DNA of 64,000 nt, from assembly GCA_900323505.1 (NCBI GenBank), contig OOIN01000037.1, forward strand, positions 124,001 through 188,000. The letters are read 5' to 3'. Under the pieces are notes generated by a model. The model saw only the letters and a program-made list of their open reading frames with translations. It did no database searches and was not told the origin of the DNA. The position numbers and the translations under genes were made by a program. The stretch comes from Ustilago trichophora. Lineage: Eukaryota; Basidiomycota; Ustilaginomycetes; Ustilaginales; Ustilaginaceae. Of the stretch, positions 44,777 through 50,119 are shown piece after piece. The first letter of the stretch is position 1. Every line of letters starts with the position of its first letter.

Positions 44777-45904
44777 CTAGATGAATCGCCACTGAATCCC
44801 GTTCAAATCGCCCACATCTTTACAGTCGAGAGCTTCAAAGACGCTGGGACTCATATCCAAGCTGGTCGGGTAGCAAGTTGGACATTCGTCCATGGCGAAT
44901 GCGTGCGTCTTTTTCCCCTTCCAAGAGATTTCGACCTTGCGACCGCAGAGAGAGTTGTGGTTGGGATTGCCGGAGGATGGATTGTACTGCTCAAAGAGGT
45001 CTTTGGAGACAGCGACGATGGGATCGGTGTCGGTGTTTACGATGCCACACGCGCCAAGGCCGGTATCGTAGTAGGTGGCGTGGCCGGTGAAGGGGGTGGA
45101 TTGGGTGTAGAGGGAGGAGGTGGAGGGAGACGAGGATGTGGAGAAGGAGGGTGGGGTGTAGCCGTTGATCGAGTTGCCCGAGTTGTTGTCGCTAGAGCCA
45201 GTGTGGTGTTTTGAAGATCCTTTCTCGCCGTTGCTAGCCTTGCCGTCGTTGTTGCCAGTGCTGGGGGCAGGGTTGGAGATCTCGGGTGGGGTCGTCGGAT
45301 CCTGAGCTTGAGCGGGCTGAGGTTGTTCCTTGGGCTGTTCGGGCTGAACGTAGTTGTTCGAGGGCTGCTCCTGCTTGGGCTTCTTATGGGTCTTCTTCAT
45401 CTTTGGCTTGTTCTGAGACGGCTGTTGGGGCTGCGGCTCAGGCTCAGGCTGAGGCTCAGTCTGAACACTCTTAGATTCGCCATCACCATCCTCGCAGTCA
45501 TCCTTATTCTGCTTATCGTCACCGACCTGCTTATCATCACTTCCATCCTGCTTGGAAGCGCCCTTCTCACCGTCATCATCTTTAGACTGAGCAGAGTTCT
45601 GAGCCGGATCATCCACGCCTCCAGCAAAACCATTGAGGTAGAAATTCAAGCTTTCATCGTCGCCATAGTCGTTGTAATGCTGAAGCGCTGCTTCGAGAGC
45701 ATGCAAGTGAGCCTCGTATCCGTCGTGCGCGGAAACATCTCCATGGTCGTCATCCCTGCGGTGGGTAGAAGCGCTGCGACGGGAATGGGCGATTCCACGG
45801 TGGTGGTGAGCTCGGTGGAGACCGGTAGGAAGAGCCTGGGTGGAGGAAGTGGTGAGGGTGAGGATGGCGAGGGTGCCGAAGAGGAAGAAGTTGATGATCT
45901 GCAT
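44777..45904 (-). CDS. Secreted RlpA-like double-psi beta-barrel (barwin/expansin-like) protein
   Basis: 375 aa. Residues 1-24 form a signal peptide (MQIINFFLFGTLAILTLTTS..ALP). A His/Arg-rich propeptide with possible Kex2 RR sites follows, then a long Lys/Gln/Asp/Pro-rich, probably disordered region (about 100-265). The fold lies at the C-terminus (about 270-375): GHATYYDTGLGACG, NHNSLCGRKVEISWKGK, AFAMDECPTCYPTSLDMS, VFEALDCKDVGDLNGIQWRFI. The HATYY-x-GLGACG and DECPxC..SLDxSxxxFE signatures are those of fungal DPBB proteins, with cysteines for two disulphides. Relatives bind polysaccharide or inhibit plant proteases and are often induced during colonisation. I infer an extracellular or wall role; a plant-facing role is possible but not shown. 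Confidence 0.85.
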   Translation of the reverse strand: MQIINFFLFGTLAILTLTTSSTQALPTGLHRAHHHRGIAHSRRSASTHRRDDDHGDVSAHDGYEAHLHALEAALQHYNDYGDDESLNFYLNGFAGGVDDPAQNSAQSKDDDGEKGASKQDGSDDKQVGDDKQNKDDCEDGDGESKSVQTEPQPEPEPQPQQPSQNKPKMKKTHKKPKQEQPSNNYVQPEQPKEQPQPAQAQDPTTPPEISNPAPSTGNNDGKASNGEKGSSKHHTGSSDNNSGNSINGYTPPSFSTSSSPSTSSLYTQSTPFTGHATYYDTGLGACGIVNTDTDPIVAVSKDLFEQYNPSSGNPNHNSLCGRKVEISWKGKKTHAFAMDECPTCYPTSLDMSPSVFEALDCKDVGDLNGIQWRFI

Positions 45905-47263: not shown

Positions 47264-50119
47264 TTAAGCAAAGATCCAACCATCCTGTCCCTCGGCCCAC
47301 TCAGCAAGTACAGTGCTGACGCTAGCCTCTTGGAATCGGACCTTGGTCTCGGCCTCCTCCTCGGCGTTCTTGGGCAGTTTGACACCAAAACCATCACCAC
47401 CGACCCTGGTCTCGTAGCATTTGAATCCGGCGTTCTCGAGCTCGCTCGTTAGCTGTTTGACTTTCTCCTCCTCGAAATCATCAGGCAGGAGCGTCACCGC
47501 ACAACCGCCTCCACCGGCGCCAGTGAGCTTGGTAGCCAGCTGCTCGGGGGCGAACGTCTCGGTCTTGTTCTTGATCAGCTCGAGGGCAGGGTGCGAAACT
47601 TCGAGACCCACCAGCTCAGTGTGATTCTGCTTGATGAGCTCGCGAAGCTGGGCGACTTGGTCAGCTCGGTTGAGGCCAGAAGAGCCAGAGAGCAGGTGCT
47701 GGGCTTTGTCAGCGATGCTCTGGATGCGGGTGAGAGCGGCATTGACTCGGGTAGGCTCGGCTTCCTTTTGAGCGGCGACGTGGGCGATGAGTTTCTTACC
47801 CTCGCGTCCGACGCAACTGTCAACGAGCAGGAAGCGGAACGACGAAAAACCCTTGAGCTTGTCCATCTTGTTCTCGGTCAACGTGTTGATAGGGTGAGCA
47901 CGGGTGAAGGCAATAGCGCCACCGTGGACAGCGACCGAGTTGTCGACGCCAGAGGGAGTGCCGTGGATCACCTTCTCCGAGAGGAATGCCCACTGGTTGA
48001 CGTAGGCCGAGTGGTCAGCTGCCACTTCAGCAGCGGGAGCAGGGATGCGCCCGTAGAGAATGTTGAGAGCCGCCGACAGGCACGAGCTAAGTGCGGCGCT
48101 GGAGCCGAGACCGGCACCGATGGGCAAGGCAGAACGCAGCACAAATGCCTGCGCACGAGCATCGGCCTGACCAGCGATGCACATGTACAGCACCAGGAAG
48201 GCGATCGAAGCAGCGTGGCTCCTCTCGCTCTCGTTGACCGTGTCACCCACCACCTTTTCAATGGCGCTGATGAGTCCCTTGTCGAGCGAGTCGGGGACAG
48301 CTCCGCCACCCTGGATCGACTTGGGCACAGCAGCCCAGGGGAGCTCGGCAATGTCCCAGGTGTGAATGACTCCGAGGTCGGGCAAGTCGAGCGAGATCTT
48401 GCCATCCTCACGAGGCGAAACGCTTGCATAGCATCGCAGAGCCACCGAACCGGCAACGGCAGTGACACCGTGAACCACCGCATGCTCGCCAAACAAGATC
48501 ACCTTACCGGGAGCGCTGACCACGATCGATGTCGGCGGCGGGTGATCCTGAGCAAGGCCAGGTTCCCCCTCACCGCCACGGGTCTCGAGCTTGGCACGGT
48601 TCATATCGTCGACCAAGCTGCCCACCTTGTCGCCCTGCAGGTGCTGGTCGGTATCCAAAGGCGTACGCTCGTAGGCAATGGGATCTGGAGATGCTGCGCG
48701 GGAGCTTTCGGAGTTGAGATCGATCGATCGGGAAGAGGGCTTGCGGCGGATGGCACCGGCTTGCAGGAGCGCGTTCTCGAGGTCTTCGAGCAAATCACGC
48801 TCGTCCTCGATACCGACGCAGAGACGGATGAGGTCCTCGGGCATGCCTCGAGCGGCGCGTACCTTGGGGTCGATGGAAGCGTGCGACATGAGACAGGGCA
48901 TCGAGATGAGACTGTTGACACAGCCGAACGACACCGAGATACCCCACAGTCGGGTAGCTCCGACAATGCGTTCCGAGAGCGCCTTGTCGCCGGTAACAAA
49001 GCTGAGCACGGAACCGGGACCAGCAGCTTGCTTGTCGTGAATCGCCTTGGAAGGGTGAGAAGCGAGACCGGGGTAGTTGACCTTGAATCCGAGCGAGTCG
49101 AGGTAGTGAGCTACAGTGATGGCAGAAGCCTGCTGTCGGTCCATGCGCACAGCGAGGGTCTTGATACCACGAAGCAAGAGGAACGAGTCCATGGGAGTGA
49201 GTGCATTTCCGATCGAGTTGATGGTGAATGCAATCTGCTTGCCGAGGTCGTCTCGGTCGCAGGCAATGACACCGGCCATGAGATCGTGGTGTCCCGAGAG
49301 ATACTTGGTACCCGAGTCGTAGACGACGTCGACACCCAGCTCGAGCGGACGCATGAGGTAAGGCGACATCATGGTGTTGTCGACAACGACAACGGCATCG
49401 GGAGCCCACTTCTTGGCGGCAGCGGCGCAACGCTGGAGATCGCAGATCTTGAGACAAGGGTTGGTGGGAGTCTCGAGGAGAACCATGCTGACCTTGCCAC
49501 AGAGACCGGCAGCTGCGTCACGGCTGCGCTGCTGGAGCATCTGCTCGACCTTGTCAGCATCGGTGGTGTCGACATGGTCGGTGTGGATGTTCTGGTGCGA
49601 GGCGAGGTAGCCAAGCAGACGGTTGGTACCACCGTAGAGATCGTCACCAGCAATGATGCGCTCGCCGGCCTTGACGATGCGAGTGATGACATCGAGACAG
49701 GCCATTCCACTGGAAACGGCGAAGCTGTACTTGCAGTTCTGGAGCTGGCAAAGGTGGTGCTGGAGCATGGAACGGGTGGGGTTGCCCGAACGAGAGTAGT
49801 CGAATTCGGCACCGGGAAGACCCTTGAAGGTGGCGGACATGTAGATGGGAGCCGAGGAAGAGCCGTACTGGTCCTTGTGGTTGGGGTCATCTACGGTAGC
49901 GCACTGCGTGGCGAAGCGGTAGCCGTTGGGACCGCGACGGTCCTTGTGCGAGACAAAGGGTAGCTTGAGATCAGCATCGTCGCCAAGGTCGGAAGGCTCG
50001 GGAGAAGTAGGGATCGACGAGTCGAGAGAAGCGACGGACGAGGCAACATCGGTGCTGAAGGGTGTGACGGTAGACGCCTGGGAGGACGATACGCTGCAGG
50101 TGGCACGAGGGGCCGACAT
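47264..50119 (-). CDS. Cystathionine beta-lyase / mevalonate kinase fusion protein
   Basis: 951 aa in one uninterrupted frame, from the ATG at 50119. Residues about 50-455 are a Cys/Met-metabolism PLP enzyme: FDYSRSGNPTR (108-118), FAVSSGMACLDVI, AGDDLYGGTNRLL, and DSGTKYLSGHHDLMAG with the PLP lysine K272. These read as cystathionine beta-lyase (cystathionine to homocysteine, pyruvate and ammonia). A polar linker of about 75 residues follows. Residues about 530-930 are a complete GHMP mevalonate kinase: APGKVILFGEHAVVHG (K539), ALPIGAGLGSSAAL (664-677), E715 and HGTPSGVDN with catalytic D726, and KLTGAGGGGCA (864-874). This would be Erg12, phosphorylating mevalonate for sterols. Both catalytic sets look intact, so a bifunctional enzyme is expected. 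M506 in the linker could start a kinase-only product. The gene diverges from the Nxt1 gene across 555 bp. Confidence 0.93.
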   Translation of the reverse strand: MSAPRATCSVSSSQASTVTPFSTDVASSVASLDSSIPTSPEPSDLGDDADLKLPFVSHKDRRGPNGYRFATQCATVDDPNHKDQYGSSSAPIYMSATFKGLPGAEFDYSRSGNPTRSMLQHHLCQLQNCKYSFAVSSGMACLDVITRIVKAGERIIAGDDLYGGTNRLLGYLASHQNIHTDHVDTTDADKVEQMLQQRSRDAAAGLCGKVSMVLLETPTNPCLKICDLQRCAAAAKKWAPDAVVVVDNTMMSPYLMRPLELGVDVVYDSGTKYLSGHHDLMAGVIACDRDDLGKQIAFTINSIGNALTPMDSFLLLRGIKTLAVRMDRQQASAITVAHYLDSLGFKVNYPGLASHPSKAIHDKQAAGPGSVLSFVTGDKALSERIVGATRLWGISVSFGCVNSLISMPCLMSHASIDPKVRAARGMPEDLIRLCVGIEDERDLLEDLENALLQAGAIRRKPSSRSIDLNSESSRAASPDPIAYERTPLDTDQHLQGDKVGSLVDDMNRAKLETRGGEGEPGLAQDHPPPTSIVVSAPGKVILFGEHAVVHGVTAVAGSVALRCYASVSPREDGKISLDLPDLGVIHTWDIAELPWAAVPKSIQGGGAVPDSLDKGLISAIEKVVGDTVNESERSHAASIAFLVLYMCIAGQADARAQAFVLRSALPIGAGLGSSAALSSCLSAALNILYGRIPAPAAEVAADHSAYVNQWAFLSEKVIHGTPSGVDNSVAVHGGAIAFTRAHPINTLTENKMDKLKGFSSFRFLLVDSCVGREGKKLIAHVAAQKEAEPTRVNAALTRIQSIADKAQHLLSGSSGLNRADQVAQLRELIKQNHTELVGLEVSHPALELIKNKTETFAPEQLATKLTGAGGGGCAVTLLPDDFEEEKVKQLTSELENAGFKCYETRVGGDGFGVKLPKNAEEEAETKVRFQEASVSTVLAEWAEGQDGWIFA

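What the first reader, a model, noticed from the sequence alone, without database searches (positions are those of the whole stretch)
47264..50119. Methionine-pathway lyase fused in frame to mevalonate kinase
One 951-codon frame encodes a complete cystathionine beta-lyase (PLP lysine K272) followed by a complete mevalonate kinase (K539, GLGSSAA loop, D726, GAGGGGCA), joined by a polar linker of about 75 residues. In the model fungi these are separate genes (STR3 and ERG12). Both catalytic sets look intact, so the fusion would tie homocysteine production to the first phosphorylation of the sterol pathway. Methionine feeds S-adenosylmethionine, which sterol C24-methylation consumes, so shared dosage makes sense; that link is inference. 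I do not know whether this fusion has been described.
Basis: partly seen in the sequence, partly recalled or inferred. Interest (0 to 1): 0.85.

Follow-up and report, generated by a model that had tools for sequence, protein, structure and literature searches.

The report
Known fungal two-enzyme fusion gene
A smut fungus makes one methionine-pathway enzyme and one sterol-pathway enzyme as a single fused protein; the fusion is real, but it is old, widespread in basidiomycete fungi and was already published in 2012.

Summary
On the minus strand, 47264-50119 is one uninterrupted 951-codon frame: cystathionine beta-lyase (CBL, ~77-455), a 76-residue linker, then mevalonate kinase (MK, ~532-951), catalytic residues intact. 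It is not new: Liu et al. 2012 (PMC3342255) described it as "metC-MVK" and placed its origin in the basidiomycete ancestor; two later papers repeat it.

Added here: both subgenomes of this genome carry it, and no other match passes the curated cut-off for either enzyme. All 120 database relatives listed (of 626 found) have both domains; named ones include Ustilagino-, Puccinio- and Agaricomycotina. Trees of chosen rows for each half set the fused sequences apart from the named non-basidiomycete stand-alone enzymes, as one origin predicts. One unnamed Microstromatales-like contig may have split the gene again.

The linker may be more than spacer: a near-invariant Arg (46 of 47 rows), a [LIVM]xTRGG[ED] motif (31 of 120 relatives, all among the top 32 hits), and few silent differences between the two subgenomes (one pair of sequences only).

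Most likely: two independent enzymes on a flexible tether, kept because it is the sole source of two needed activities. The proposed sterol-methylation coupling is untested. Already known; modest interest.

The parts
47264..50119 (-). Fused CBL-MK coding frame, 951 codons plus stop, no interruption in the frame
   Evidence: second copy on C30 with the same structure
49892..50119 (-). N-terminal extension, residues 1-76, predicted disordered
   Evidence: AF2 pLDDT <50 for 1-111 (this also takes in the first 35 residues of the CBL match); stretch before residue 69 is 9-110 residues long in the 47 rows of A1, window included
48767..49891 (-). Cystathionine beta-lyase domain (PF01053, TIGR01329), residues 77-451
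49304..49306 (-). PLP-binding Lys codon K272 (= K278 of 1IBJ)
   Evidence: invariant in the 47 rows of alignment A1
48527..48754 (-). Linker, residues 456-531; mostly low-confidence in the model; lowest silent divergence of the gene between subgenomes
48665..48751 (-). Two short predicted strands at the start of the linker (457-459, 483-485), holding near-invariant R485
   Evidence: strands in AF2 model (that they pair as a hairpin is my reading); R485 in 46 of 47 rows
48686..48700 (-). R-A-A-S-P (474-478), possible proline-directed phosphosite in linker (inference)
   Evidence: in the 17 Ustilaginomycotina rows looked at (window included): S477 14, P478 14, R474 10 of 17
48569..48589 (-). Linker motif LETRGGE (511-517), pattern [LIVM]xTRGG[ED]
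   Evidence: 31 of 120 listed relatives, plus P0240 and P0241
47378..48526 (-). Mevalonate kinase domain (GHMP; TIGR00549), residues 532-914
48503..48505 (-). K539 codon (= rat MK K13)
47942..47944 (-). D726 codon (= rat MK D204)
47267..47377 (-). C-terminal tail of the MK half (915-951), two predicted helices, W948 invariant in A1
   Evidence: stand-alone fungal MKs often have a Trp near the end too

Best explanation
A bifunctional gene, one copy per subgenome, inherited from an early basidiomycete. One polypeptide carries a working cystathionine beta-lyase (cystathionine to homocysteine) and a working mevalonate kinase (mevalonate to 5-phosphomevalonate). The two folds act independently, joined by a flexible tether with a small anchored hairpin; nothing is channelled because they share no intermediate. 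The fusion fixes a 1:1 synthesis ratio and persists mainly because it is the only source of two needed activities, so neither half can be lost. Shown: the frame, both domains, intact catalytic residues, no other match over the cut-offs in this genome, breadth among listed relatives, trees that fit one origin. Inferred: enzyme activity, one mRNA and one protein in this species, and the reason for retention.
For: Frame and domains. Only the two fused copies pass the curated cut-off for TIGR00549 (2 of 8 matches) and TIGR01329 (2 of 12 matches). Purifying selection between the two subgenomes: CBL 62 synonymous and 0 non-synonymous changes, MK 92.5 and 12.5 (dN/dS 0.036). 120 of 120 listed relatives match both domains; APGK, GLGSSA and PSGxDN motifs 120 of 120; PLP-Lys motif 119 of 120 (the miss, P0026, covers only 66% of the query); GAGGGG 117 of 120, the three misses reading GGGGGG. 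Trees: one branch (SH-aLRT 99 for MK, 100 for CBL) has all 46 fused rows on one side and the 18 (MK) and 20 (CBL) named non-basidiomycete rows on the other. Model: 50 of the 76 linker residues under pLDDT 50, pTM 0.50. Linker length 40-131 residues in 47 rows, which speaks against a rigid interface. A fused unigene (transcript) is reported in Pleurocybella porrigens (PMC3720577, passages).
Against: No expression or protein data for this genome. The silent-site conservation of the linker (1 of 42 fourfold sites differ versus 111 of 489 in the rest of the gene) and the TRGG motif hint that the junction does more than tether. The AF2 model is a monomer and parts of the CBL half are themselves under pLDDT 50 (77-111, 273-275, 391-402), so an interface between oligomers was not tested. 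Liu et al. name Laccaria bicolor as an exception, and P0124/P0256 may be a split pair, so fusion may not be obligatory. In the trees the label 'fused' as such needs 10 (MK) and 6 (CBL) changes, at least 5 forced by starred branches, because rows not labelled fused fall inside the fused side: 12 in MK, 5 in CBL; all but P0124 and P0256 look like cut gene models. The genome search reads exon by exon, so an intron-broken second copy could score low. 506 of 626 hits were not seen; no Puccinia or Wallemia row was among the 120.
Confidence: 0.8

Rival explanations
1. Selected coupling: the fusion is kept because homocysteine/SAM supply and sterol synthesis must be matched (sterol C24-methylation uses SAM).
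For: Presence in three subphyla (names; lineages looked up for seven species). A parallel basidiomycete fusion, spermidine synthase-saccharopine reductase, where the separate Neurospora genes are reported as co-expressed (PMC10051792, abstract and passages).
Against: No shared intermediate. Retention is equally expected of any single-copy fusion of two needed genes. SAM has many users besides sterols. I had no co-expression data.
Confidence: 0.15
2. The junction is processed or internally initiated, so that some MK (or both enzymes) exist as separate proteins made from one gene.
For: Linker is the lowest-divergence block: 3.5% DNA difference versus 7.5% N-terminus, 5.5% CBL, 8.3% MK and 13-29% in 250-base flank windows; 0 of 3087 windows of 42 fourfold sites in 7 other gene pairs of the window are as low. 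[LIVM]xTRGG[ED] motif in the disordered part, and M506 in many smut rows.
Against: 51 of 118 parsed linkers lack any Met. The motif is absent from the other 89 of 120 listed relatives, Malassezia and Jaminaea included. Linker RNA is not unusually structured (z 0.48; 132 of 200 shuffles fold as well). 24 of 3087 control windows have 2 or fewer differences, so the signal is extreme but not unique. Only one pair of sequences.
Confidence: 0.1
3. One half is a passenger: it keeps its fold but no longer supplies the activity.
For: None found beyond the GGGGGG variant of the MK glycine loop in three of 120 rows.
Against: No other match in the genome passes the cut-off for either enzyme; catalytic residues conserved and dN/dS near zero.
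Confidence: 0.03
4. Assembly or frameshift artefact joining two neighbours.
For: None.
Against: Same frame on the second contig and both domains in 120 of 120 listed relatives from many sources.
Confidence: 0.005

Closest known systems
metC-MVK fusion of basidiomycetes (Liu et al. 2012, PMC3342255; also PMC4129116 and PMC3720577)
   Same: Same order (CBL then MK), similar length (average ~886 aa), reported as the only homologue of both enzymes, found only in basidiomycetes (passages).
   Different: 951 aa here; the linker features (R485, TRGG motif, silent-site conservation) are not mentioned in the passages I read. Liu et al. note a 16-residue insertion in the MK half of some species, which I did not check.
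Ustilago maydis Mvk1, UMAG_05496 (PMC7396576)
   Same: Mevalonate kinase assigned in a close relative; the paper notes MK was the only pathway enzyme KEGG had not predicted, as would follow if the gene is filed as cystathionine beta-lyase (my inference).
   Different: The word cystathionine does not occur in its main text; I did not see the protein under that name.
Stand-alone fungal CBL (Str3/MetG type) and MK (Erg12 type)
   Same: Same enzyme families; best-scoring named stand-alone hits are from Mortierellomycota, Mucoromycota, chytrids and Ascomycota (120 rows listed each; phyla partly recalled).
   Different: Two genes, no linker.
Spermidine synthase-saccharopine reductase fusion of basidiomycetes (PMC10051792)
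   Same: Another basidiomycete fusion of enzymes of two pathways.
   Different: Different enzymes; described there with expression data (passages).

Membership tests
Basidiomycete metC-MVK fusion | CBL N-terminal and MK C-terminal in one frame | tested here: met
Basidiomycete metC-MVK fusion | Only homologue of each enzyme in the genome | tested here: met
   (one per subgenome over the cut-off; introns are not bridged by that search)
Basidiomycete metC-MVK fusion | Groups with basidiomycete fusions in both halves | tested here: met
Basidiomycete metC-MVK fusion | Single transcript | not testable with these tools
   no RNA data; fused unigene reported in Pleurocybella (PMC3720577)
Cystathionine beta-lyase (TIGR01329) | Score over curated cut-off and PLP lysine | tested here: met
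   513.7 vs 487.5 bits; K272 = 1IBJ K278
Cystathionine beta-lyase (TIGR01329) | Cleaves cystathionine to homocysteine | not testable with these tools
   needs assay
Mevalonate kinase (TIGR00549) | Score over curated cut-off and catalytic Lys/Glu/Asp | tested here: met
   196.1 vs 163.05 bits; K539, E715, D726
Mevalonate kinase (TIGR00549) | Phosphorylates mevalonate | not testable with these tools
   needs assay

The most novel reading that the evidence does not exclude
The junction is a functional element in smut fungi: the conserved disordered TRGG motif, the R-x-x-S-P site and the silent-site constraint mark a place where the cell docks, phosphorylates, cleaves or re-initiates, so that mevalonate kinase is regulated or released separately from cystathionine beta-lyase.
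Probability: 0.12. Interest if true: 0.6.

Novelty: already known. Interest (0 to 1): 0.3.

Why it matters
Where the fusion is the only copy, a step of methionine synthesis and a step of sterol synthesis cannot be lost or dosed apart at the gene level. It helps to explain how mevalonate kinase can be missed by automatic annotation, since many database names for the fusion are just "cystathionine beta-lyase". If it is confined to basidiomycetes, as Liu et al. report, it is a shared derived character of the phylum. If the linker signal is real, it offers a concrete place to look for regulation.

Tried and rejected
Stand-alone basidiomycete copies: many rows looked like separate MK or CBL. Of the rows printed most are cut gene models: seven CBL rows (P0242, P0245, P0247, P0255, P0257, the 506-aa Vanrija humicola P0258, P0311) end just after "GEHAVVHGVV" inside the MK half, and P0140/P0240 and P0169/P0241 are halves listed with the same longest-contig length. 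P0124/P0256 (both listed with 27,861 bases) remains a possible true secondary split: both halves fall beside Jaminaea, the CBL stops inside the linker and the MK starts with unrelated residues. An intron in the linker would look the same, and no DNA was available.

RNA structure in the linker: no signal (z 0.48). Internal start M506: not general. My first PLP-lysine pattern found 115 of 120; P0043, P0068, P0069 and P0077 were the pattern's fault and have the Lys. In one search the line "other genes 9 of 3577" wrongly included the fusion gene; one search repeats it with the gene excluded (0 of 3087). That control used frames of 200 codons or more whose partner was at least 85% identical; other frames were dropped before the count (how many was not printed). 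A resemblance of LETRGG to the ubiquitin tail LRLRGG (recalled) was considered and not pursued: no ubiquitin fold precedes it. No comparison of folds was run.

Literature: nine searches. concern the CBL-MK pair, gene fusions in fungi, functional work. Eight papers were opened, and only passages found by word search were seen; others (Xanthophyllomyces genome, PMC4393869; PMC9925542) held nothing on the fusion. Other listed papers, for example PMC9810662 on Ganoderma SREBP, were not opened. I know of a 2012 survey of fungal gene fusions (Leonard and Richards, recalled) but did not see it.

Full report
WHAT IS THERE. The frame at 47264-50119 lies on the minus strand: 951 codons plus stop, no internal stop. 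Pfam places Cys_Met_Meta_PP at residues 77-451 and GHMP kinase domains at 659-734 and 823-888. The curated equivalog models are passed for both enzymes: TIGR01329 with 513.7 bits against 487.5 and TIGR00549 with 196.1 against 163.05. They align with K278 of Arabidopsis cystathionine beta-lyase (1IBJ) and with K13 and D204 of rat mevalonate kinase (1KVK); E715 aligns with E193. The catalytic roles of those template residues are recalled.

THE GENOME. The genome (38.8 Mb, 45 contigs) behaves as two diverged subgenomes: nearly all family matches come in pairs (one weak GHMP match on C12 has no partner and was not followed up). The partner copy on contig C30 encodes exactly the database protein P0001, named from Ustilago trichophora (the contig length 600,407 also agrees). 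The two copies differ at 16 of 951 residues. By the Nei-Gojobori count the CBL has 62 synonymous and 0 non-synonymous changes, the MK 92.5 and 12.5, the linker 4.5 and 3.5 (dN/dS 0.25).

SOLE SOURCE. Searching the whole genome with TIGR00549, 2 of 8 matches pass the cut-off, and with TIGR01329, 2 of 12; in both cases these are the two fused copies. The search reads exon by exon, so an intron-broken copy could score low. The other GHMP members that I classified are homoserine kinase and a phosphomevalonate kinase match that stays below its own curated cut-off, and a galactokinase-like frame judged by eye from its sequence.

ALREADY PUBLISHED. Liu et al. 2012 (PMC3342255; abstract and passages seen) report the fusion as metC-MVK "in 12 Basidiomycete fungi except for L. 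bicolor", call it the only homologue of either enzyme there, and place its origin in the ancestor of Basidiomycota. PMC4129116 (passages) repeats this for Lignosus; PMC3720577 (passages) reports a fused unigene, that is a transcript, in Pleurocybella. In nine searches of the held library I noticed no functional study of the fusion; that rests on listings and on passages of eight opened papers, and the library lacks most subscription journals.

BREADTH. A search with the full-length protein gave 626 hits, of which the best 120 were listed; the other 506 were not seen. All 120 match both domains. Named rows include Ustilaginomycotina, Pucciniomycotina (Microbotryum) and Agaricomycotina (Cryptococcus; Bartheletia). 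Puccinia and Wallemia were not among the listed rows. Searches with each half (120 rows listed each) put Mortierellomycota, Mucoromycota and Ascomycota among the best-scoring named stand-alone enzymes.

ORIGIN. Trees were built from rows I chose: 81 for the MK half (46 fused, window included, and 35 others) and 73 for the CBL half (46 fused, 27 others), out of 359 proteins held plus the window. In the MK tree one branch (SH-aLRT 99) parts 23 stand-alone rows (18 named, 5 unnamed) from 58, which hold all 46 fused rows and 12 others. In the CBL tree one branch (100) parts 22 stand-alone rows (20 named, 2 unnamed) from 51, which hold all 46 fused rows and 5 others. Because of those 12 and 5, the bare label 'fused' needs 10 and 6 changes on the trees, at least 5 forced in each. 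All of them except P0124 and P0256 look like cut models: they begin inside the linker, the MK or the CBL half, or end inside the CBL or MK half. So the picture fits one origin. It does not date it, and the quick method has no bootstrap.

A POSSIBLE SECOND SPLIT. P0256 (CBL, 453 aa) and P0124 (MK, 507 aa) are each listed with the same longest contig length, 27,861 bases, and both group with Jaminaea (Microstromatales), whose own protein P0074 is fused. P0256 ends inside the linker. Either the gene was split again or an intron sits in the linker; I cannot tell.

THE LINKER. The AlphaFold2 model from 47 sequences has mean pLDDT 77.2 and pTM 0.50. The MK half is confident; the CBL half is mostly confident, with 77-111, 273-275 and 391-402 under 50. 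In the linker 50 of 76 residues are under 50. Two short strands at 457-459 and 483-485 I read as a hairpin. R485 there is Arg in 46 of 47 rows. The pattern [LIVM]xTRGG[ED] occurs in 31 of 120 listed relatives and in two further partial models, P0240 and P0241. All 31 are among the 32 top hits; among the first 34 it is missing only in P0028 (Tilletia maclaganii) and two Malassezia, and Jaminaea lacks it too. The stretch between residues 457 and 534 runs from 40 to 131 residues in 47 rows.

SILENT SITES. Between the two subgenomes, 1 of 42 fourfold sites differs in the linker against 111 of 489 in the rest of the gene (Fisher p 0.0006; four segments were looked at, so about 0.0025 after correction). 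DNA difference is 3.5% in the linker, 7.5% in the N-terminus, 5.5% in CBL, 8.3% in MK, 13-29% in flanking 250-base windows. As a control, 7 other gene pairs of the window give 0 of 3087 overlapping windows (about 79 independent ones) with 1 or fewer differences, and 24 with 2 or fewer. This is a lead from one pair of sequences, not proof; a local gene-conversion tract or low mutation could also produce it. Linker RNA shows no unusual folding.

HOW IT WORKS. The reactions share no intermediate, so channelling is unlikely. I favour two independent enzymes on a tether, made in fixed ratio, and retained because neither half can be dropped. The sterol-methylation idea remains possible but rests on nothing measured.

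VERDICT. What may deserve follow-up is the linker.

Noticed in passing
whole genome G000; window 1-64000 versus C30:385001-475000: The assembly holds two strongly diverged subgenomes (fourfold-site difference 10-39% per gene in 8 gene pairs; flanks of the fusion gene 13-29%), which suggests a hybrid or a mix of two strains rather than an ordinary dikaryon.
   Followed up: partly
P0230 and P0291 (Mortierella alpina); P0183 and P0269 (Mortierella sp. GBA30): In two Mortierella genomes the separate MK and CBL genes may lie on one contig (locus tags KVV02_006121 and KVV02_006124 with equal contig length 234,308; equal contig lengths 140,356), while in several other Mortierellomycota in the lists the contig lengths differ. 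Possibly neighbours of the kind from which a fusion could arise.
   Followed up: partly
P0124 and P0256 (one contig length of 27,861 bases): Possible secondary split of the fusion in an unnamed Microstromatales-like fungus.
   Followed up: partly
P0033 and P0034 (Malassezia psittaci, M. yamatoensis): Fused proteins of 1249 and 1210 aa, several hundred residues longer than the other named Malassezia rows (830-863 aa); a further fusion or a merged gene model.
   Followed up: no
P0035, P0042, P0059: MK glycine loop reads GGGGGG instead of GAGGGG.
   Followed up: no
G000:C36:466175-467296 and C30:115665-116783: The stretch matching Cys_Met_Meta_PP (reads by eye like an O-acetylhomoserine sulfhydrylase) has a TGA inside the match on both subgenomes, perhaps at an intron.
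   Followed up: no
window 44777-45904 (-): 375-aa frame with a hydrophobic N-terminus, a low-complexity Gln/Pro/Lys-rich middle and a Cys-containing C-terminal part; by eye a secreted protein.
   Followed up: no
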